63,957 nucleotides of DNA from a virus. Shown one piece after another: positions 44,732-57,008 of the stretch. Positions within the stretch are counted from its first letter, which is position 1. Every line of letters begins with the position of its first letter. Made by a program: the position numbers and the translations under genes. Below the pieces are notes generated by a model that was not told where the DNA came from, did no database searches, and saw only the letters and a list, made by a program, of their open reading frames with translations. The DNA is taken from positions 1-63,957 of IMG/VR virus record IMGVR_UViG_3300028840_000655. One strand, written 5' to 3'.

Positions 44732-46282
44732 GTGAGCATCGCAGCCGCTCCGAAGTTCCCGTCGAACTGGCAGGACATCGCGGACGGCATCGTCGTCGAC
44801 CTCGAACTCGAAGCGGAAGCCGCGAAGGAACGCGAGAGCAAGGTCGCAGCCGTCCGGGAGGACGTGCGTGAGTTCGCGAAGTACGTGTGGCTCAACGACC
44901 CGAACCGGGGACCAATCCCCTTCGACATGTGGGACTGGCAGTTGGGTCTGCTCGACCTGTGGGCGAACGAACCGGCGGTGTGCGTCCTCAAGGCGCGGCA
45001 GTTGGGCGTCTCGTGGCTCGTGGCTGTCTACGTCGTCTGGCGCGGTCTCTTCAACCACGGGCAACGCATCCTGCTCGTCTCCATCGGGCAGCGCGAAGCC
45101 GACAAGTTGTTGGAGAAATGCAAGTTCATCATCGACATGCTCCCCGATTGGCTCAAGCCGCCGGTCGGGACGTACGTCGACAACGTCACGCGGCTCCGGT
45201 TCGACCTCGTCGACAGCGAAATCGAGTCCCTGCCAGCATCCGGCGGCGTCGGTCGCTCCCGGTCGGCATCGCTCGTCGTCCTTGACGAACACGCGTGGCA
45301 GGCGCGCGACCGCGAAATCTGGACCGCCATCAAGGCGACCGTCGAGCATGGCTCCATCATCTCCATCTCGACAGCCAACGGACTCGGTCCGCTCCACACG
45401 CGCATCTACAAGTCGGCGAAGCAAGACAAGGGCCGGTTCATCCCCGTCTTCATCCCGTGGTCTGCCGACCCCCGGCGCAACGAGACGTGGTACGAGGCAG
45501 AGCGCGAAGAGTACGAACTGGCCGGACAGGGCGATGAGTTCGTGCAGGAGTACCCGGCGAACGACGAAGAGGCATTCATCGTCACCGGCTCCCCGGTGTT
45601 CAGCGCTCCCGTCCTCTTGGCGTTGCCGCAGGAAGCCGTAGAACCAACGGAGCCGGGACTGTGGGTCTACCGCAGGCCGGAACCCGGCGCGCGCTACGCC
45701 ATCGGCTGTGACACGTCTGAGGGCGTCGCAGGCGGCGACTGGTCGAGTGCGACCGTCCTCAAGTTGGAGCAGGCCGAGACGGACGCTGGTCTGCCAACGT
45801 ACCGGGCCGAACAGGTCGCGCAGTTGCGGGGCCGATGGGAGCCGGAGGTCTACGCGAAGAAAGTCGATGCGCTGGCGCGGTACTACGCGAAGGCGACGGA
45901 GCGGAAGCGCGGCACCATGCACCACGTACAGGTCGGGGTCGAGCGCAACAACCACGGACACGCGGTTCTCGTCGTCCTACGTCAACTCAACCCGCAGGAA
46001 GACCCGTACACGCTCACGGCATGGGGCGGCAAGGTCGGATGGCTCACGAACAAGCAAACGCGTCCCATCATCCTTGACACGTTCGCCGGGGCGGTCCGGG
46101 CGGGGGACATCGCGATACACGACCCCGGCACCATCTCGCAGATGTCGACGTTCAGCCAAACCGCAAGCGGCGGCGAGGCGCAGAGCGGCTACCATGACGA
46201 CGACGTCCTCGCAGCAGCGATAGCGTTCGTCCATGCGAGGCGCGCGTTCGGCGTCACCGTCGAGATGCGGAAGCGGGAGTAG
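44732..46282 (+). CDS. Terminase large subunit
   Basis: A 516-aa TerL starting at GTG. ATPase motifs: KARQLGVS (87-94, Walker A-like) and LVVLDE (181-186, Walker B with catalytic Glu), then SIISISTANG coupling motif. The C-terminal RNase H-fold nuclease has GCDTSEG with Asp327, VERNNHG, and HDDDVLAAA near the end. It cuts and pumps DNA into the procapsid. Complete and intact. Confidence 0.93.
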   Translation: MSIAAAPKFPSNWQDIADGIVVDLELEAEAAKERESKVAAVREDVREFAKYVWLNDPNRGPIPFDMWDWQLGLLDLWANEPAVCVLKARQLGVSWLVAVYVVWRGLFNHGQRILLVSIGQREADKLLEKCKFIIDMLPDWLKPPVGTYVDNVTRLRFDLVDSEIESLPASGGVGRSRSASLVVLDEHAWQARDREIWTAIKATVEHGSIISISTANGLGPLHTRIYKSAKQDKGRFIPVFIPWSADPRRNETWYEAEREEYELAGQGDEFVQEYPANDEEAFIVTGSPVFSAPVLLALPQEAVEPTEPGLWVYRRPEPGARYAIGCDTSEGVAGGDWSSATVLKLEQAETDAGLPTYRAEQVAQLRGRWEPEVYAKKVDALARYYAKATERKRGTMHHVQVGVERNNHGHAVLVVLRQLNPQEDPYTLTAWGGKVGWLTNKQTRPIILDTFAGAVRAGDIAIHDPGTISQMSTFSQTASGGEAQSGYHDDDVLAAAIAFVHARRAFGVTVEMRKRE

Positions 46283-46321: not shown

Positions 46322-47947
46322 ATGACAGAGAAGAGCAAGGGACCGCTCATCACGAAGGCGTGGGTCTTCGACGGACCGGGCGGGGTTCGCATCGCGAAGG
46401 CGGAAGCCGACAGCCAGCAGTTGCCGGACGACCCGTTCAACTACAGGCCGGACTCGACATCCAGCGGTCTCATCCGTCCGCCGATGTCGATGGATGGGTT
46501 CGCGGCGCTACTCGGCGGACCGTACGGTTCAGGCAACACGCTCCACGCTCGATGCGTGGCGCAGAAGGCGTCTGACGTCGTCGGGCGCGGCATCGAACTC
46601 CGTGCCATCGAGGACGAGGACGAGAACGAAGAGGGCGCACAGGGCGCGCAGGCCGAAGAGGACCGATACAACGCTTGGCTCGAAGGCGTCGAAGACGACG
46701 CGCAGCAGGAGTGGTCGTTCAAGGAACTCCTGACGAACGTCTGGTCCGACTACGAGAGCATCGGTTGGGGCGTCATGGAGTCAGGACGCAATCTCGGCAC
46801 CGGACTCCCCGATGGGCTGTGGCACGTCCCCGCTCACACGATGCGCGCACACAGCGACCACGTCCGCTTCGCGCAGACGCGCGGCGACAAGTTGGTCTGG
46901 TTCAAGCGCTTCGGCATCGAGGGGGATGTCGACAAGACGGACGGCGAGTGGTATCCGGAGGGGCTTCCCCCGGAGCGGCGCGGCAACGAGGTCATCGTCA
47001 TCCGCAACTACACGCCGATGTCGTCGTACTACGGACTCCCCGACATGGTCCCGGCGCTCGGCGCGTTCGCGGGCTGGTCGGCACAGCAGCAGTTCAACGT
47101 CAGGTTCTTCGACAACCAAGCCGTTCCGAGCATGGCCGTCGTCATCGAGGGCGCGGAACTGTCCGACGAGGTCGAGGCGACCATCTATGACCACTTCGAG
47201 CGCATCAAGGGCGACCCGTCTCGCACCATCGTCATCCCAATCCCCGGCATCCCCGGCATCGCCGAGCAGTTCCAACCGAAGTTGCGCTTCGAGAAGTTGT
47301 CGACCGAAATCAAGGACGCGTCGTTCCGCATGTACCGGCAGGACATCGCGTTGGAGACGTGCATCGCGCACGGCGTTCCCCCGTACCGCATCGGCTGGCC
47401 CATCGTCGGCAGTCTCGGCGGCTCCACGGCGGAAGAGATGACGCAAATCTACAACGACAGCATCGTCCAGCCGAGACAAGAGACCATCGAGAAGCGTCTC
47501 AAGCGGACCATCCTCGGACCCAACGGTCTCGACATCACGTCGTACGAACTCAAGGTCAACGAACTCGACGTCAGGAACGAGATGCGGGACTTGGAGAAGT
47601 CGCAGAAGATGTACGAACTCGGCATGTCGACCCCGAACGACGCTATCCGGTTCTTCGGGATGGACGAGCGCGAGGACGAGGGCGGCGACGAGTACATCAA
47701 GGTTCCGCTCGCAGCGAACAAGGGCACGACTTCGACCCCGGACGAGTCACCGATGCCAGCGTTCGGCGCTCCCCCTCCGCCACCTACGGCAGAGCCGGAG
47801 GACAACCCGTTCGTCGAAGAGGCGGTCGCGAAGTATTGGCGCGACCAACTCCGGGACATCACGGACCTCAAGGAACGCGTCGCGAAGGCTCTCGGAGACG
47901 ACCTGACGGCTCTCGAAGAGGAAGACCCGGTTCGAGCGCTGGCGTAG
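46322..47947 (+). CDS. Portal protein
   Basis: A 541-aa protein following terL after 39 bases (with AGGGG before the ATG). Features of portals: a segment GFAALLGGPYGSGNTLHARC, GWGVMESGRN, IRNYTPMSSYYGLPDM, and a C-terminal helical crown (SYELKVNELDVRNEMRD). The clearest match is with PBSX/SPP1-like actinophage portals. The end is acidic and proline-rich. It forms the DNA entry ring. Confidence 0.88.
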   Translation: MTEKSKGPLITKAWVFDGPGGVRIAKAEADSQQLPDDPFNYRPDSTSSGLIRPPMSMDGFAALLGGPYGSGNTLHARCVAQKASDVVGRGIELRAIEDEDENEEGAQGAQAEEDRYNAWLEGVEDDAQQEWSFKELLTNVWSDYESIGWGVMESGRNLGTGLPDGLWHVPAHTMRAHSDHVRFAQTRGDKLVWFKRFGIEGDVDKTDGEWYPEGLPPERRGNEVIVIRNYTPMSSYYGLPDMVPALGAFAGWSAQQQFNVRFFDNQAVPSMAVVIEGAELSDEVEATIYDHFERIKGDPSRTIVIPIPGIPGIAEQFQPKLRFEKLSTEIKDASFRMYRQDIALETCIAHGVPPYRIGWPIVGSLGGSTAEEMTQIYNDSIVQPRQETIEKRLKRTILGPNGLDITSYELKVNELDVRNEMRDLEKSQKMYELGMSTPNDAIRFFGMDEREDEGGDEYIKVPLAANKGTTSTPDESPMPAFGAPPPPPTAEPEDNPFVEEAVAKYWRDQLRDITDLKERVAKALGDDLTALEEEDPVRALA

Positions 47948-47956
47948 TCTGGCGTC

Positions 47957-50900
47957 ATGCCCTACGCCAGCGTCGCAGAACTCCCGGCGAGCGTCCGGCG
48001 TCGTCTGACGGCGCGGTGCGCTCGCGTGTGGATGCGTGCGTTCAACGCGGAGTACGCGAAGAGCGGAAGCGACGCGAAGGCCATGATTGCGGCGAACGTC
48101 GCAGCACGGAACTGTCAGCGCACCATCGCGAAGTTGCTCGACGACCTCGAACTCGCAGCGTCGCGGCGCGTGGTCAAACAGCAGACGGCACCGTCACGCA
48201 AGGCGCGCGACGACTTGCAGCAGCGCATCCTTCACGAGTGGATTGACGCACTCAGGGCGTACTACGTCGGGTTCGCAGAGCGCATCGGCGTCGAGATTGA
48301 CACGACGCTCCCTCCGAACCAACGGCAAGGGCGCATGGTCAACCCGGAGCGGGACCGGCGGAACTTCAAGGTCACGAAGCGCAAGACGTTCATCGGACTC
48401 CCGACGCGGGCACCGTTCGACCTTCCGATTGACTGGCAGAACGAAGCGAACATGCTCGCGGACGTCATGGGCGAGCAGTACGTCAAGTGGCTCAACGCCG
48501 GGACGGCGCGGGCGGCGACGGACATCGCGCTCGTCAACGCGGACGTCAACGCTATCCGGGGCATCGCCGGGTCGCTCCAACTCGGCGACTACGAAACCTC
48601 TATCCGACAGGAACTCGCGAACCGCGTCGTCCGCATCACGGAGGTCCAGCGCACCGTCCTCCGCGACACGGTCCAGCGTGGCATCGAGGCGGGGCTGTCG
48701 ACGAAAGAGATTGCTCGCGGGGCGCGCGTAGGCGGGCGGGTCTATCCGGGCATCAAGGGCAGGGTCGACGAGTTCTACCGCAACCGCTCGCGGGTCATCG
48801 CGCTCACGGAGTCGGCGAACGCGTACAACCTCGGACAGTTGGAGGGCTACTCGCGCTCCGGCGTCGTTCAGGAGGTCCGCATCTTCGACGGTCTCGATTG
48901 CGGTTGGACGAACCACGACGACCCCGACAAGGCGAACGGCACGACGCGCACGTTGCAGCAGGCGGCGGCACAGCCGACGTCGCATCCGAACTGTCAGCGC
49001 TCATGGGCACCCGTCCCGCTCGCTCAGACGCAGGGCGTAGGCCGCACAGCGACGCAGACATCGGGCATCTCGACGAAGCCGCCTACATCGACCCCGACTC
49101 CCCCTCCGCCACAGGCGCGCGTCGGCGTCCCCGGTTCGCGTTGGGCACAGGCATCGTTCGACGACGTCGAGCGGGCGATGCTTCCCGAAGTCGCTCCGGG
49201 TCAGGCCGAATGGGGATGGACGCAGATTGACGACATCACCCGGCTCCCGCGCGACCCGAACGGCAACGTCATGTCGCGGCTCTACATCGACAAGCCGACT
49301 CAGGCGCGGGCGCGCGAAATCATGCGTGAGCGCTACGGCATCCAAGACGTCACGTTCGACGCAGTCACGAAGTCGCAGTACACCATCGACGACGTCCGCG
49401 ACGTCATGCTCGCGTTGGAGGACTACCGCGACCTCGGCGTCGGCTTCGACGACCTCGTCATCAACTTCACGAAGAACAAGGGCGGCGGCGCGCTCGCGGA
49501 CTTCCGGACGTACAACGGCACGGCGGGCGAACTCAACTTCCATCTCTCGCTCGCTCGGCGCGCTCGGTTGGGCAACACGGTCCACGACGGGCAGTACACG
49601 GGCTTCCGCTCGACGGCACAGCACGAACTAGGGCACGCGCTCGACGACCGGACGATGTCGACGTTCTCCGGGCGGTTCCGGTGGAATGCCGATTGGGCGA
49701 GGGCGACAGCGTCTCAGGCGGACAACGACGAATGGCGCATCATCCACAACTCGTCGCGCGGCGTGGGCGGCGGCAAGGACGCAGCGCAACAGGTCAAGGC
49801 ATACCAGAGCCGTCTCGCGGACCTTGACGACGAGATTGCGCGCAGGACGCAGTCGCTCGCGGAACGGCAGGCGCGGTTCGCTCGTGCGACGGACCCGACC
49901 GACATCCAGTTGCAGCGTCGCTCCATCCAACTCGAACAGTCGCAGTTGGCGCAGGCGAAGAACTCGAAGGCTCAATACGAGCGGTTGCTTCGGCGGCTAC
50001 AGGACGACATCGACAGCGGAGCCGAAGCGTTCCCCACGAACTACGCGCAGACGGCGGCGGGCAAGGGCAACCCGTTCGCGGAGGACTTCGCGGACACGGC
50101 GCGCGGCTACTTGCAGAACCCGACAGAGTTCAAGCGGCTCTACCCGCGACGCGCAGCGCACTTCGAGAAGATGTTGGAGCGGGCGCGCTCCCTGCCGAAG
50201 AACTACGCGGACGACGTCCCTCTTCCGAAGAACACAGCGCTCTATCAGCAGCAGGAAGCGGCGAAGAAAGCGCAGCGAGCGGCGAGGGCGAAGGCGAAGC
50301 GAGACGCGGCGAAGGAAGCGGCGAGGCGCGAGGCAGAGCGCAAGGCGCAGGAAGAGGCGGCGCGCAAGGCGCGCGAAGAGGCGGCTCGTCTCGAAGCCGA
50401 ACGCAGGGCGCGCGAGGAAGCGGCACGGCGCGCACGCGAAGAGGCGGCTCGACGGGCAGCGGCGGCGGACGACGTCTACAGGCCGAACCCCGGCATCACC
50501 AATCGCTCGGATTGGGCGGGCATCGTCGACGAGGGCGCAGAGCATTACCGGACGACGAGGGCGCTCGGCGGCGACCCCGGCAATCAGACGATGGCGGCGA
50601 TGAACGCGCGGCTCGGCACGGATGGCGCTCCGCGTGTCGTGGACTCGGTCGACGACCTCGTTCGGGCGGGCTGGCGCGAGACCTATCGTGGGACGTCATC
50701 CGCGACGTTCAACGACTCGTTCCGCTCAGGCGCGTTCTTCCCCGGCAAGGGCATCTACGGCGACGGCACCTACACGGCGGCGGCGCAGTCGTCAGGCAGC
50801 GCGCTCCGGGGCGGCGGTCCACGCATCGCAGCGGGCTACGCGACGGACTACGGGAAGGTCATGCGGATGGCGCTTCACCCGCGCGCGAAGGTCATCTCGT

Positions 50901-51265
50901 ACGACGACGCGTGGCAGGGCATGGTCGAAGGCGAGAAGCGGTGGCGCGAGGCGAGGGGCATCTTCCTTGACCGGGAGGGGCGAGGGTACTTCTACAAGCG
51001 CATCGACCCGGCGAGCGGGCGCGAACTGTCGTTCCCATCTGCGGGAGACGACATCTCGGCGTGGACGCGCGTCCCGGAAGAGGTCTTGGCGGAAGCCAAA
51101 GAGTTCGAGGACTACGGACAATGGGCGCTCGCCAACGGCTATGACGCCATCATCGCCGACCACGGGACGACGGGCGTCCACGACTACATCGTCATCCTCA
51201 ACCGCACGGCGGTCGCGGTCGAGAAGGTCGACAGGTTCCCCGACGAGTTCAACCCCATCCTGTAG
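47957..51265 (+). CDS. MuF head protein fused to metalloprotease-like and ADP-ribosyltransferase-like domains
   Basis: A 1102-aa protein directly after the portal. Residues 1-50 resemble ChaB (SVAELPASVRRRLTARC). Residues 190-350 are a MuF-type minor head domain (TESANAYNLGQLEGYSRSG, then CGW ... HPNCQRSW). A region with HELGH at about 556-560 suggests a zinc metalloprotease-like fold. Residues 620-840 are long helices ending in Ala/Arg/Glu-rich repeats. The last 200 residues (YRGTSS near 908, PGKGIYGDGTYT, then DYIVILNRTA) resemble an ADP-ribosyltransferase. MuF fusions with toxin domains are known as 'MuF polymorphic toxins'. It could be packed in the head and injected. Catalytic residues are inferred. 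Confidence 0.75.
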   Translation: MPYASVAELPASVRRRLTARCARVWMRAFNAEYAKSGSDAKAMIAANVAARNCQRTIAKLLDDLELAASRRVVKQQTAPSRKARDDLQQRILHEWIDALRAYYVGFAERIGVEIDTTLPPNQRQGRMVNPERDRRNFKVTKRKTFIGLPTRAPFDLPIDWQNEANMLADVMGEQYVKWLNAGTARAATDIALVNADVNAIRGIAGSLQLGDYETSIRQELANRVVRITEVQRTVLRDTVQRGIEAGLSTKEIARGARVGGRVYPGIKGRVDEFYRNRSRVIALTESANAYNLGQLEGYSRSGVVQEVRIFDGLDCGWTNHDDPDKANGTTRTLQQAAAQPTSHPNCQRSWAPVPLAQTQGVGRTATQTSGISTKPPTSTPTPPPPQARVGVPGSRWAQASFDDVERAMLPEVAPGQAEWGWTQIDDITRLPRDPNGNVMSRLYIDKPTQARAREIMRERYGIQDVTFDAVTKSQYTIDDVRDVMLALEDYRDLGVGFDDLVINFTKNKGGGALADFRTYNGTAGELNFHLSLARRARLGNTVHDGQYTGFRSTAQHELGHALDDRTMSTFSGRFRWNADWARATASQADNDEWRIIHNSSRGVGGGKDAAQQVKAYQSRLADLDDEIARRTQSLAERQARFARATDPTDIQLQRRSIQLEQSQLAQAKNSKAQYERLLRRLQDDIDSGAEAFPTNYAQTAAGKGNPFAEDFADTARGYLQNPTEFKRLYPRRAAHFEKMLERARSLPKNYADDVPLPKNTALYQQQEAAKKAQRAARAKAKRDAAKEAARREAERKAQEEAARKAREEAARLEAERRAREEAARRAREEAARRAAAADDVYRPNPGITNRSDWAGIVDEGAEHYRTTRALGGDPGNQTMAAMNARLGTDGAPRVVDSVDDLVRAGWRETYRGTSSATFNDSFRSGAFFPGKGIYGDGTYTAAAQSSGSALRGGGPRIAAGYATDYGKVMRMALHPRAKVISYDDAWQGMVEGEKRWREARGIFLDREGRGYFYKRIDPASGRELSFPSAGDDISAWTRVPEEVLAEAKEFEDYGQWALANGYDAIIADHGTTGVHDYIVILNRTAVAVEKVDRFPDEFNPIL

Positions 51266-51301
51266 TGGTGACAGCGCGCACCATCCGGCGAAGATTGGGG
51301 G

Positions 51302-51330
51302 TTGACGTCTACGCGAACGTAGTCCACTAT
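51302..51330 (+). promoter_or_regulatory. Promoter P10 with embedded operator
   Basis: TTGACG (51302-51307), 17-base spacer, CACTAT (51325-51330, weak). Operator copy CTACGCGAACGTAG lies at 51309-51322. GATTGGGG and a GTGACAGCGCGCACC element lie upstream. Confidence 0.7.
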
Positions 51331-51372
51331 CAGGACATCAAGCCAAACGGCTAGCACGAACGGAGACCCGCA

Positions 51373-51870
51373 ATGCAGACCATCACCATCAAGACCGCTC
51401 TCATCACCAACTTCCGCGACAGCAGCGGCATGATGTTCGACCCCTCGTTCGGCGAGATGATGCTCATGGACCGCACGCAGGGTCCGGACGTCACCATCGC
51501 CGTCGACGAGACGCAGGACGAAGCCGCCACCATCGCCGAGAAGGTGTGGGTCGTCGGCAACCGCATGGCGCGCGACGCCAACGGCACGGCATGGCCGAGC
51601 AACGTCCGCTCGATGAGCATGGGCGACGCGGTCGTCTTCGAGTATTGGGGCGAGACCTTCATCGCCATCGCCAAGGACTTCGGCTTCCACGTCGAGTTCA
51701 TCAACCCGCTCTTCGTCGACAAGGTCGCCGCTCCCCGGAGCGAGCAGGGCGAGTTCGGTCCGTGGGCCGACGCCAGCGACGAGGTCGTGGCCGGTCTGAC
51801 GGAGCGCGAGTCCGCTGTCGAGTTCGAGACCGCCCGCATCCAGAGCGACCCGTACGGTCTCATGAGGTAG
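51373..51870 (+). CDS. Hypothetical protein, first gene behind P10
   Basis: A 165-aa acidic protein (SSGMMFDPSFGEMMLMDRT, then EKVWVVGNRMARDANGTAWP). It starts behind CACGAACGGAGACCCG. It lies alone between P10 and P11, inserted between the head protein and the protease. Unknown function. Confidence 0.6.
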   Translation: MQTITIKTALITNFRDSSGMMFDPSFGEMMLMDRTQGPDVTIAVDETQDEAATIAEKVWVVGNRMARDANGTAWPSNVRSMSMGDAVVFEYWGETFIAIAKDFGFHVEFINPLFVDKVAAPRSEQGEFGPWADASDEVVAGLTERESAVEFETARIQSDPYGLMR

Positions 51871-51894
51871 GTCGAAGAAGTGCGGTTAGGGGGG

Positions 51895-51930
51895 TTGACG
51901 CCCCCCGCCGCATCGACTACTCTGGCGTAG
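51895..51930 (+). promoter_or_regulatory. Promoter P11 with embedded operator
   Basis: TTGACG (51895-51900), 17-base spacer, TACTCT (51918-51923). Operator copy CTACTCTGGCGTAG (51917-51930) covers the -10, so a bound protein would block it. Confidence 0.8.
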
Positions 51931-51961
51931 ACATCGCAACCACACACGAACGGAGACCACG

Positions 51962-52384
51962 ATGCAGAAGCAAGTCACCCTCAACATCCAGAAGGACACC
52001 GGCTCCAACTGGACGTTCCGCTCCACGGACGCGAACGGCGAGACGACCGTTTGGGACATCGACGTCCGCATCGCCAACGAGCATGACAGCACGTACGACG
52101 TCAACGGGCGTCAGGCGACCGTCAAGTTGTACGTTCAGGTCTGCCAGCAGGACGTCGAGCGTCCCGCGTTCATCTCGACTCGCGGCACCCTCGTCATCAA
52201 CCGTCTCCACGACGGCGAGATGTTCGACTGCGAAGCGACCCTCGACTTCGGCAAGTTCGAGACCATCGGCGAGACGGCAGTCATCGGCAAGACCCGCCGG
52301 GGCACGGCAGAAGCGTTCGCTTCACAGGTCGCTCAGGACTTCGTCGCGAAGATGCGGCGCGACCGGAAGGCGGTCGCCAAGTGA
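51962..52384 (+). CDS. Hypothetical protein, first gene behind P11
   Basis: A 140-aa beta-rich protein (TGSNWTFRSTDANGETTVWD, then QATVKLYVQVCQQDVERP) with a basic helical end (RRGTAEAFASQ, RDRKAVAK). It starts behind CACGAACGGAGACC. It overlaps the next start by 4 bases. Unknown function. Confidence 0.6.
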   Translation: MQKQVTLNIQKDTGSNWTFRSTDANGETTVWDIDVRIANEHDSTYDVNGRQATVKLYVQVCQQDVERPAFISTRGTLVINRLHDGEMFDCEATLDFGKFETIGETAVIGKTRRGTAEAFASQVAQDFVAKMRRDRKAVAK

Positions 52385-53842: not shown

Positions 53843-54256
53843 GTGGCGGACGTCGTCTCGCGTGACGACTCATTCGAGGTAGCCGTCCCAATCGCAAAGC
53901 GCGATAGGGCACGGCAGATTGCCTATGGCGTCGTACTCGAACCCCGCGACGCGTCGAACCCGGACCTACAGGGCGACTGGCACTCGGCAGAAGACGTCGA
54001 GAAGGCCGCTCACCGCTTCCTTGCTCACGTCGCCAACGGCGAGGGTTTCGGCGACCACATGCACGACCGACAGACGAAGGCGGGATACCCGGTCGAGTCC
54101 TTCATCGCCCCTGTGGACTTCACGTTGGGCGACCAGTTGGTCAAGCGCGGTTCGTGGGTCATGGGAATGCACTACCCGGACCCGAACATCTGGAAGGGCA
54201 TCGTTGACGGGCGCTACTCGGCGTTCTCCGTTGGCGGCTACGGACGGAGGGTCTAA
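53843..54256 (+). CDS. XkdF-type prohead protease
   Basis: A 137-aa protein matching XkdF-type capsid maturation proteases: YGVVLEPRDASNPDLQGDWHSAEDVEKAAHRF at residues 28-59, then HMHDRQ, VESFIAPVDF, VKRGSWVMGMHYPDP and FSVGGYGRRV. GTG start, probably leaderless. The stop TAA is followed at once and in the same frame by the ATG of the next gene, whose first residues complete the XkdF 'VSLVDKGAN' motif; so this looks like a family member split by one stop codon. Confidence 0.78.
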   Translation: MADVVSRDDSFEVAVPIAKRDRARQIAYGVVLEPRDASNPDLQGDWHSAEDVEKAAHRFLAHVANGEGFGDHMHDRQTKAGYPVESFIAPVDFTLGDQLVKRGSWVMGMHYPDPNIWKGIVDGRYSAFSVGGYGRRV

Positions 54257-55174
54257 ATGCCACGTCTCGTCGACATGGACATCGACACCGTCTCCCTCGT
54301 GGACAAGGGCGCGAACAATCGAAGGTTCGCCGTCCTCAAGCGCGCGTCAGTCCGTGGGCCGATGGTCTCCGCGCCTGACGACGCTCAATCGACGGAGAGC
54401 GGCGATAACGTGTCAGATGACACAGAACCAGAGTCGGGCGTTCGCGCGGCTCTGGGGAAGATTGCGGACGCTCTGGGGCTGTCTGACGAAGGACGCGAGT
54501 TCGTGGGCTTCGTCGACAACCACGGACAGCCGCTTACGGCAGAGACCGTCACGAAGGCGGTCGACTCATACCGGGACTTCGTCCTCGACGCTCTCAAGGT
54601 CGAGAAGGCGGGGCGGAAGATTAGCGGCGCTCGGATGACGCAGTTGAAGAACGCGATGAGCGTTCTCGGCGACCTCATCAACGGCGTCGAAGAGGGGTAT
54701 TGGACCCCGCCGAACATCGAGAAGGGACACGAGGTAGACGACATGAACGAGCAGGAACTCCGCGAACTCGTCGCGAAGACCGTGAGCGATACCTTCACGG
54801 CGGCGTTCGCCGACGACGGCGCGGGCACGCAGGCCATCGCGAAGGCGGTCGCGGGCGTGCAGAAGTCAGACGAGGCTCCCGCAGAGAGCAAGGAAGAGGC
54901 TCCGGCGGCTCCCGTCGAGACTGCGGCTCCGGCTCCGGCGGCGACCGAGACGTCCGCGCAGGAACTCGCCGACGCCATCTCCAAGCGTCTCGACGAGTTC
55001 GGCACGACTCAGGGTCAGGTCATCGAGGCGGTCGCGAAGGTCGCCGAGCGTCTTGACAACCTCGAAGGCGGCGCGCGCCAGAGCGGCGGAGCCATCGAGA
55101 AGGGCGAGAAGCCGAAGACCATCACCAAGCGCGAGAAGGGCGACATGTCGTCCCTCCACGGCATCCTCGGATAA
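54257..55174 (+). CDS. Capsid scaffold-like protein with XkdF C-terminal motif
   Basis: A 305-aa acidic protein beginning MDIDTVSLVDKGANNRRFAV, the last motif of XkdF-type proteases, then a long helical region with Ala/Pro/Glu-rich linker (EEAPAAPVETAAPAPAA) typical of scaffolds. It is in frame with the protease upstream, separated only by TAA, and has its own Shine-Dalgarno (GGAGGGTCTAA). It probably guides procapsid assembly. Confidence 0.7.
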   Translation: MPRLVDMDIDTVSLVDKGANNRRFAVLKRASVRGPMVSAPDDAQSTESGDNVSDDTEPESGVRAALGKIADALGLSDEGREFVGFVDNHGQPLTAETVTKAVDSYRDFVLDALKVEKAGRKISGARMTQLKNAMSVLGDLINGVEEGYWTPPNIEKGHEVDDMNEQELRELVAKTVSDTFTAAFADDGAGTQAIAKAVAGVQKSDEAPAESKEEAPAAPVETAAPAPAATETSAQELADAISKRLDEFGTTQGQVIEAVAKVAERLDNLEGGARQSGGAIEKGEKPKTITKREKGDMSSLHGILG

Positions 55175-56054: not shown

Positions 56055-57008
56055 ATGACCATGACCGGAGACGAACTGCTCCGCAAGGCAGCGGGGACCA
56101 TCACGGTTCCCGGCAACTTCATCGCGGCGTCGGGACTGCTCCTGCCAGAGCAGGCCGACGCGTTCCTCGATGCTGTATACGACGCGACTCCGTTCGCTGC
56201 GCTACAGCGTGTCGAGCGTCGTCGCTCCAAGAGCGGCACCATCGCGAAGATTGGCATCGGCTCGCGCCTGCTCCGTCCGAAGACGACGGGCGTAGACGAC
56301 GCCACTCTCAGCCGTCCGGACTTCTCGGACGTCGGCTACCAGACGGTCGCTTCGCGGCTCGACTGGGAGATTGACGAAGAGACGTTCGAGGAGAACATCG
56401 AAGGCGCGGGCTTCGAGGACCATGTCCTCCGGCTCATGACCGACCAAGTCGGGCGCGACCTCGAAGACCTCCACTTCAACGGCGACCCGACCGACGTCTC
56501 GGCGGACGCGGTCTTCCTCAACCAGAACGCCGGTTGGCTCTACCAGTTGGAGACCGGCGGCATCGCGCATCGCGTGGACGGCTCCGCCATCTCCGCAGGC
56601 GCGGTCGAGAAGGGTCACTTCTTCGCTGCCATCGAGGCGATGCCGGACAAGTATCTGCAACAGGGCCGAGCGCGGTGGATGGCTTCCCCGACCACATGGG
56701 CGCGTTACGTCGAGTACCTGACCGACCGGGCGACCGGCGCAGGCGACAGCGCTCTCATCAACGGTCAGGTTCCGTCAATCGCGGGCATCAACGGCGTGTC
56801 CATCCCGGTCATGCCGAACGACCGCATCCTTCTCGCGGACCCGCAGAACTTCATCGTCGTGAACACCAAGGACATCCGTGTTCGCCGAACGACTGAGGGT
56901 CGCGAGGCCATCCGCGCCGACAAGCGCTTCTACGCAATCTTCCTTGACGACGATTGCATGATTGAAGAGCAGGACGGCGTCGTGGACGTCTACGGTCTCA
57001 CCGCCTAA
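56055..57008 (+). CDS. Major capsid protein (HK97 fold)
   Basis: A 317-aa protein. The HK97-fold pattern includes an N-arm (LLLPEQADAFLDAVYDAT), a middle spine-helix region (LEDLHFNGDPTD) and the A-domain (ADPQNFIVVNTKDIRVRRT, FLDDDCMIEEQDGVVDVYG). It resembles capsid proteins that lack a long N-terminal delta domain and use a separate scaffold, which is consistent with the upstream gene. It would be the most abundant phage protein. Confidence 0.85.
   Translation: MTMTGDELLRKAAGTITVPGNFIAASGLLLPEQADAFLDAVYDATPFAALQRVERRRSKSGTIAKIGIGSRLLRPKTTGVDDATLSRPDFSDVGYQTVASRLDWEIDEETFEENIEGAGFEDHVLRLMTDQVGRDLEDLHFNGDPTDVSADAVFLNQNAGWLYQLETGGIAHRVDGSAISAGAVEKGHFFAAIEAMPDKYLQQGRARWMASPTTWARYVEYLTDRATGAGDSALINGQVPSIAGINGVSIPVMPNDRILLADPQNFIVVNTKDIRVRRTTEGREAIRADKRFYAIFLDDDCMIEEQDGVVDVYGLTA

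What the first reader, a model, noticed from the sequence alone, without database searches (positions are those of the whole stretch)
47957..51265. MuF head protein carrying a metalloprotease-like motif and an ADP-ribosyltransferase-like C-terminus
A 1102-aa protein after the portal combines a ChaB-like start, a MuF domain, HELGH (a metal-binding HExxH), long helices and a C-terminal region with YRGTSS, GKGIYGDGTYT and DYIVILNRTA. In MuF polymorphic toxins the head protein carries an effector. Such a protein, packed in the capsid, could enter the cell with the DNA and modify host targets (compare T4 Alt). Having two possible enzymatic domains in one head protein is unusual.
Basis: partly seen in the sequence, partly recalled or inferred. 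Interest (0 to 1): 0.75.

Follow-up and report, generated by a model that had tools for sequence, protein, structure and literature searches.

The report
Phage head protein with two enzymes
A bacterial virus carries, fused to a protein of its head, a likely protein-cutting domain and a likely NAD-using (ADP-ribosyltransferase-fold) domain, probably injected with the DNA to reprogram the host; the general design is known, but this NAD-using domain belongs to a widespread group that the main family libraries do not name.

Summary
The 1102-aa ORF is intact, follows terminase and portal, and has a weak ChaB-like start, a divergent MuF-type head domain, HELGH and the C-terminal motifs. (1) The C-terminal domain is unnamed in Pfam and NCBIfam, but 30 aligned sequences, mostly phage head proteins, share R911, GxGIYGNGTY (Y939), A958/Y961 and NR1082-1083. 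AlphaFold2 (pLDDT 81) gives an ADP-ribosyltransferase (ART) fold; the top PDB matches are all ART-superfamily enzymes, and a profile comparison links it to phage ART-PolyVal domains, with R911 replacing the usual His. The catalytic-acid position is D1076 here but acidic in only 18 of 30. (2) HELGH plus a downstream Glu helix matches metallopeptidase regions of large phage proteins (hhalign 96%), though the predicted fold was low-confidence. Best model: a virion-packaged MuF-peptidase-ART effector, in logic like T4 Alt, MuF toxins (Bxa) and polyvalent proteins. Packaging, injection, activity and target are inferred. Two enzymes in one head protein is not unprecedented: cyanophage PSS2's carries a zeta-toxin kinase, an apparent canonical ART and this domain. 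The novelty is the unnamed ART family with an R-Y-(D) signature on several head scaffolds. New variant of a known kind.

The parts
47957..51265 (+). MuF-type minor head protein with metallopeptidase-like and ART-like domains (1102 aa)
   Evidence: ORF; PHROG head morphogenesis 2.8e-11; full-length homologue L005, 53% identity
47981..48097 (+). ChaB-like N-terminus (residues 9-47)
   Evidence: Pfam ChaB 7e-4, below cut-off
48596..49018 (+). MuF-type head-morphogenesis domain (residues 214-354), ending near HPNC
   Evidence: phrog_2468 / phrog_37388; Pfam MuF 4e-4, sub-threshold; about 78% identical in L005
49136..50230 (+). zincin-like metallopeptidase region (residues 394-758), with a predicted helical-hairpin insert (about 605-690)
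   Evidence: HELGH plus C-terminal Glu helix; hhalign to phage HExxH proteins 96%, 3.7e-9; AF2 low confidence
49622..49636 (+). HELGH (residues 556-560), predicted zinc site
50078..50086 (+). A-E709-D, predicted third zinc ligand, in the helix AEDFADTARGYLQNP
   Evidence: alignment; conserved in L005
50237..50470 (+). charged K/E/A/R-rich coil (residues 761-838) linking peptidase and ART
   Evidence: sequence; 60% identical in L005
50564..51262 (+). ART-fold domain (about residues 870-1102)
   Evidence: AF2 pLDDT 81; Foldseek/VIA ART folds; ART-PolyVal
50684..50692 (+). motif I YRG; R911 invariant (30/30), in place of the H of H-Y-E ARTs
50744..50773 (+). motif II GKGIYGDGTY; Y939 invariant (30/30)
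51182..51205 (+). motif III DYIVILNR; D1076 (acidic in 18/30), N1082 and R1083 (29/30 each, one row cut off)
46322..47947 (+). portal protein
   Evidence: Pfam Phage_portal 6e-20; 76% identical in L005
51373..51870 (+). downstream conserved 165-aa gene of unknown function (possible immunity candidate, not shown)
   Evidence: conserved in L005; no Pfam or PHROG match

Best explanation
This is a phage head protein built as MuF scaffold, metallopeptidase, coil and ART. The MuF part would place the protein at the portal or inside the capsid (inferred from homology to SPP1 gp7-type proteins). It would leave with the DNA (inferred). The zincin-like domain would then cut the polypeptide to free the ART domain or cleave a host protein (inferred). 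The ART-fold domain would bind NAD+ with the help of R911, Y939 and Y961 and, with D1076 as the likely motif-III acid, transfer ADP-ribose to a host macromolecule, most probably a protein, to favour infection, in the manner of T4 Alt (inferred). Shown here: the ORF, its genomic place, the domain order, the conserved residues, the predicted ART fold, the profile link to ART-PolyVal and the sequence link of the HExxH region to phage metallopeptidase-like regions.
For: Place between portal and head maturation protease/capsid genes. PHROG head morphogenesis. In 28 full-length homologues: Phage_Mu_F in 12, min_cap2 in 2, portal in 1, many head PHROGs. AF2 of the C-terminus: pLDDT 81, pTM 0.79. Foldseek and VIA lists are ExoA/cholix/diphtheria/PARP/ParT/RES, i.e. 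one fold, apart from one phage ejectosome chain among the 50 VIA rows. BFVD ART-PolyVal 2.4e-5. hhalign with ART-PolyVal-type domains scores 34.2 against a maximum of 19.1 in 200 shuffles, aligning R911 with the H of HGT and the GTYTA region with GLFFT. MPTase: HELGHALD conserved, Glu helix 3.7e-9. Portal and MuF are 76-78% identical to L005, the effector domains only 37-40%, as expected for fast-evolving effectors on a stable scaffold. Literature precedent: Bxa, a MuF-ART with shown antibacterial ART activity (PMC11699363).
Against: Foldseek E-values to PDB are weak (best 4.5e-3) and VIA Z is about 7, under the level of 8 that the tool's note gives as possibly only a common arrangement; the case rests on the list being almost entirely one fold plus the profile link. 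The motif-III acid is not conserved across the family (18/30), so some members, and perhaps this one, may not be classical transferases. The MPTase model is poor. There is no virion or enzyme data. No Macro or ADP-ribosylhydrolase gene and no integrase or resolvase was found, so the setting of a classical temperate MuF toxin with enzymatic immunity is not reproduced.
Confidence: 0.55

Rival explanations
1. The ART-fold domain is an NAD+ hydrolase or phosphorylase (RES-like R-Y signature) that depletes NAD+ or makes an NAD-derived toxin or anti-defence signal, rather than a macromolecule transferase.
For: Arg in motif I followed by Tyr, as described for RES (PMC9503650); RES-Xre, ParT and MbcT appear among the fold matches; motif-III acid missing in 12 of 30 aligned sequences.
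Against: The profile link tested is to ART-PolyVal, thought to be transferases (PMC5512222); the motif-III position is acidic in this protein; ARTs with NADase activity are described as under-represented in viruses (PMC9503650). RES families were not compared by profile here.
Confidence: 0.22
2. MuF polymorphic toxin of a temperate phage: the ART poisons non-lysogen competitors and an adjacent small gene gives immunity.
For: MuF-ART architecture as in Bxa with adjacent immunity genes (PMC11699363); conserved small genes follow at 51373-51870 and 51962-52384; a relative lies in a Paractinoplanes genome; stand-alone relatives in actinobacterial genomes and a Nocardia plasmid.
Against: No integrase, resolvase, Macro or ADP-ribosylhydrolase found in the window, though the record may be a fragment; the gene that follows matches no family.
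Confidence: 0.13
3. The C-terminal extension is a non-catalytic ART-fold or structural domain (DNA binding, portal plug, pilot), and HELGH serves only head maturation or is a remnant.
For: Variable motif-III acid; a cyanophage A4 pre-ejectosome chain shares Z 7 with the model.
Against: R911, Y939, Y961 and the surrounding glycines are essentially invariant across scaffolds as different as MuF, min_cap2 and portal fusions, hard to explain by a structural role tied to one head type; the domain also occurs outside head proteins.
Confidence: 0.1

Closest known systems
ART-PolyVal / Tox-ART-HYD2 clade (Pfam PF18760; N4-like virion RNAP and polyvalent proteins, PMC5512222)
   Same: ART fold, phage virion-associated proteins, motif order, acid near the start of the last core strand
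   Different: Arg instead of His in motif I, long GxGIYGNGTY signature, near-invariant NR after the last strand; the Pfam model matches only 4 of 30 members, best E 0.0048
MuF polymorphic toxins, especially Bxa (PMC5576092, PMC11699363)
   Same: MuF head domain with a C-terminal ART; head morphogenesis locus
   Different: Additional metallopeptidase; the ART part does not match ADPrib_exo_Tox; no ADP-ribosylhydrolase or integrase found in the record
Cyanophage PSS2 minor head protein ACT65592 (phrog_16619)
   Same: MuF protein carrying the same C-terminal ART-like domain (GKGIYGNGTY)
   Different: Zeta-toxin kinase and, by eye, an RSE-type ART in place of the metallopeptidase
Zincin-like metallopeptidases (MPTase) of phage polyvalent proteins
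   Same: HELGHALD and a downstream Glu helix of the pattern AExxAxxxRxYLxNP
   Different: Long predicted helical insert between the two; carried on a MuF-type protein
Phage T4 Alt
   Same: Proposed logic: head-packaged ART injected with DNA
   Different: Alt belongs to the Alt/VIP2 ARTs (literature, PMC9503650); not compared directly here

Membership tests
ART superfamily | ART fold | tested here: met
   AF2 pLDDT 81; Foldseek and VIA lists dominated by ART enzymes, although E 4.5e-3 and Z about 7 are modest; profile link
ART superfamily | NAD-dependent transferase activity | not testable with these tools
   needs an assay
H-Y-E / H-Y-D ART clade incl. ART-PolyVal | His in motif I | tested here: not met
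   R911 in 30/30 aligned sequences; hhalign places R911 on the His
H-Y-E / H-Y-D ART clade incl. ART-PolyVal | Tyr in motif II | tested here: met
   Y939 30/30
H-Y-E / H-Y-D ART clade incl. ART-PolyVal | Acid at the start of the last core strand | tested here: inconclusive
   D1076 at strand start in the model, acidic in 18/30 only; residue equivalence not checked on superposed coordinates
ART-PolyVal (PF18760) | Match above the Pfam cut-off | tested here: not met
   none for the window protein; 4/30 members weak, best 0.0048
ADPrib_exo_Tox (PF03496) / VIP2-type | Match to the model | tested here: not met
   no match for the window protein or the aligned family
RES NAD-phosphorylase toxins | RES-type R-Y active site and fold | tested here: inconclusive
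   RES chains among fold matches; no Pfam RES match at E<=1; no profile comparison made
MuF polymorphic toxin | N-terminal MuF domain | tested here: inconclusive
   Pfam sub-threshold, E 4e-4; PHROG head morphogenesis 2.8e-11
MuF polymorphic toxin | C-terminal toxin/effector domain | tested here: met
   ART fold; toxicity itself not testable
MuF polymorphic toxin | Temperate phage | tested here: inconclusive
   no integrase or resolvase in the record, which may be incomplete
MuF polymorphic toxin | Adjacent immunity gene | tested here: inconclusive
   no Macro or ADP-ribosylhydrolase; small unknown genes follow
Zincin-like metallopeptidase | HExxH plus downstream Glu helix | tested here: met
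Zincin-like metallopeptidase | Zincin fold | tested here: inconclusive
   AF2 pLDDT 60; fold search filled by the helical insert
Polyvalent protein | Several effector domains in one injected protein | tested here: inconclusive
   MPTase and ART by sequence and fold; presence in the virion and injection not testable here

The most novel reading that the evidence does not exclude
A distinct, so far unnamed ART family with an R-Y-(D) signature and an invariant GxGIYGNGTY...NR core is a mobile effector cassette plugged into different phage head proteins (MuF, min_cap2, portal-MuF fusions), released by a linked metallopeptidase in some phages, and using NAD chemistry different from known H-Y-E and R-S-E ARTs.
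Probability: 0.3. Interest if true: 0.68.

Novelty: new variant of a known kind. Interest (0 to 1): 0.5.

Why it matters
Head-packaged effectors are a poorly charted layer of phage attack. This gives a searchable profile for an ART group that Pfam and NCBIfam do not name, found in cyanophage, actinobacterial and metagenomic phages, with clear residues to test. The pair of a peptidase and an ART on one head protein makes the release-after-injection idea proposed for polyvalent proteins testable on one polypeptide.

Tried and rejected
Direct searches of viral contigs with the single ART and peptidase regions found nothing, and tblastn found only PSS2 and one Nocardia plasmid; the family appeared only after an alignment-based search. 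Pfam, NCBIfam and PHROG scans do not name the C-terminus beyond phrog_16619, which is the PSS2 protein itself. PDB sequence searches gave nothing significant. AF2 of the peptidase region (two sequences) was poor and its fold searches were filled by coiled-coil matches; no conclusion drawn. Searches for the peptidase region in 395 actinobacterial genomes and for ART-PolyVal in 247 were empty, without a positive control, so they show nothing. Three attempts to find more full-length homologues gave only L005. The canonical ADPrib_exo_Tox reading was rejected: no model match. A classical temperate MuF toxin with ADP-ribosylhydrolase immunity was down-weighted. The first hhalign run with another column rule scored lower (22 against a shuffle maximum of 21), so the ART-PolyVal link depends on gap-column handling; the value quoted uses the tool's own setting, with controls run at that setting.

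Full report
Observation. The window is a 63,957-base virus record, 65% G+C. The ORF 47957-51265 is intact, 1102 aa, and follows terminase (44732-46282) and portal (46322-47947, Pfam 6e-20). It precedes an XkdF-like protease (53843-54256, Pfam 5e-25), a head maturation protease-like gene (54257-55174) and a virion structural/major head protein gene (56055-57008, phrog_1623 3e-80). It is therefore in a head-assembly cluster. HExxH would occur 0.009 times by composition and is conserved in a homologue, so it is not chance.

N-terminus. Residues 9-47 look like ChaB (7e-4, below cut-off). Residues 214-354 match head-morphogenesis PHROG 2468 (2.8e-11) and phrog_37388 (8.6e-20), and Pfam MuF only sub-threshold (4e-4). 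The label 'MuF-type' is therefore a reasonable but divergent assignment.

C-terminus, sequence. Pfam and NCBIfam do not name it. tblastn linked it to the C-terminal domain of the cyanophage PSS2 minor head protein (28%, E 0.02) and a stand-alone 335-aa Nocardia plasmid protein (28%, 2e-4). An alignment of the three retrieved 40 viral loci and one Paractinoplanes locus. In 30 aligned sequences R911, G930, G932, G935, G937, Y939, A958 and G1061 are invariant; Y961, N1082 and R1083 are 29/30 (N and R are missing only where one row is cut off). The position of D1076 is D in 16, E in 2 and other residues in 12.

C-terminus, fold. AlphaFold2 on this alignment gave pLDDT 81 and pTM 0.79. Foldseek against PDB returned a list made of ART-superfamily enzymes (exotoxin A type, cholix, diphtheria, PARPs, ParT, RES, MbcT; best E 4.5e-3). 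VIA-align gave Z about 7 for the same group and for one chain of a cyanophage A4 pre-ejectosome. The individual scores are modest; the consistency is the evidence. BFVD included an ART-PolyVal-annotated phage protein at 2.4e-5. As an independent test, an alignment of ART-PolyVal-type domains from N4-like virion RNA polymerases was compared by hhalign: score 34.2, E 1.5e-4, probability 51%, against a maximum of 19.1 in 200 column shuffles; with another column rule the margin was small. It pairs YRGTS with YHGTG (R911 on the His), GTYTA with GLFFT and AAGYA with ARDYA. The third motif was not covered by that alignment; by eye, GYDAIIA...HDYIVIL resembles YDGIIL..GTEAMVIV, and from general knowledge of PARP and diphtheria toxin the D would sit where their catalytic Glu does. 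In the model D1076 is the first residue of that strand. Residue equivalence could not be checked on superposed coordinates.

Peptidase. The homologue L005 (1066 aa) has the same architecture and conserves HELGHALD and the AED helix. A DNA pattern for HELGHALDxR found 14 other viral stretches besides L005. Several encode large phage proteins, and a segment after HExxH, which was not part of the pattern, matches the window's Glu helix with probability 96%, E 3.7e-9, score 67.8 against a shuffle maximum of 26.7. One of the stretches, L072, looks by eye like another head-type protein with HExxH. The AF2 model of the window's region was poor (pLDDT 60) and its fold searches are uninformative.

Architecture and evolution. 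Against L005, portal is 76% and MuF 78% identical, while peptidase (37-40%) and ART (40%) diverge. Of 28 full-length homologues, 12 match Phage_Mu_F, 2 min_cap2, 1 portal (L006, which also has 2H and MuF), and many match head PHROGs. L016 adds a RelA/SpoT-like domain (0.003, below cut-off). PSS2 has zeta toxin (1e-21) and, by eye, an RSE-type ART. So the domain occurs on head proteins with varied partners, the pattern of polymorphic or polyvalent effectors.

Mechanism. Precedents are T4 Alt and MuF fusions (PMC5512222; PMC9503650), MuF toxins (PMC5576092: 20% metallopeptidase, 14% putative ART among 191), and Bxa, a MuF-ART with demonstrated antibacterial ADP-ribosylation and two immunity proteins (PMC11699363). 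The most likely reading is a packaged, injected protein whose peptidase frees the ART or cuts a host protein, and whose ART modifies a host target. An NADase reading (RES-like R-Y; PMC9503650) is the main rival. No integrase, resolvase, Macro or ADP-ribosylhydrolase was found in the record, which leans away from a lysogen-competition toxin, but the record may be incomplete.

Verdict. Observation confirmed. It is a new variant of the MuF/polyvalent head-effector kind, with a so far unnamed ART family as its main interest.

Noticed in passing
L049 (genome G115, contig C82, 54880-55422, minus strand): The same ART-like domain lies inside a stop-to-stop open frame of 20,955 aa in an actinobacterial genome, next to PP2C-like and NUDIX-like stretches (by eye): a giant polytoxin-like protein.
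   Followed up: partly
L006:3092-7543: One protein fuses portal, 2'-5' RNA ligase (2H) and MuF domains with the ART-like domain.
   Followed up: partly
L016:5192-7600: MuF protein with a RelA/SpoT-like domain followed by the ART-like domain.
   Followed up: partly
L002:2341-6840: Cyanophage PSS2 minor head protein carries MuF, zeta toxin, an apparent canonical ART and this domain in 1499 aa.
   Followed up: partly
L008, L040: Short ART-like proteins or partial ORFs on contigs of 327 kb and 277 kb, i.e. jumbo-phage size.
   Followed up: no
L072: Another apparent head protein (CxxC, HPHC) with HEFGHALD and a downstream Glu helix, then Rho_N-like repeats and a further C-terminal domain.
   Followed up: no
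L004:8258-8752: An ADPrib_exo_Tox gene (Pfam 5e-12) lies about 3 kb from the stand-alone relative on a Nocardia plasmid.
   Followed up: no
window 46322-52384 vs L005: Portal and MuF are about 77% identical while the effector domains are about 40%; the following gene is 61-66% and the next 34% identical.
   Followed up: yes
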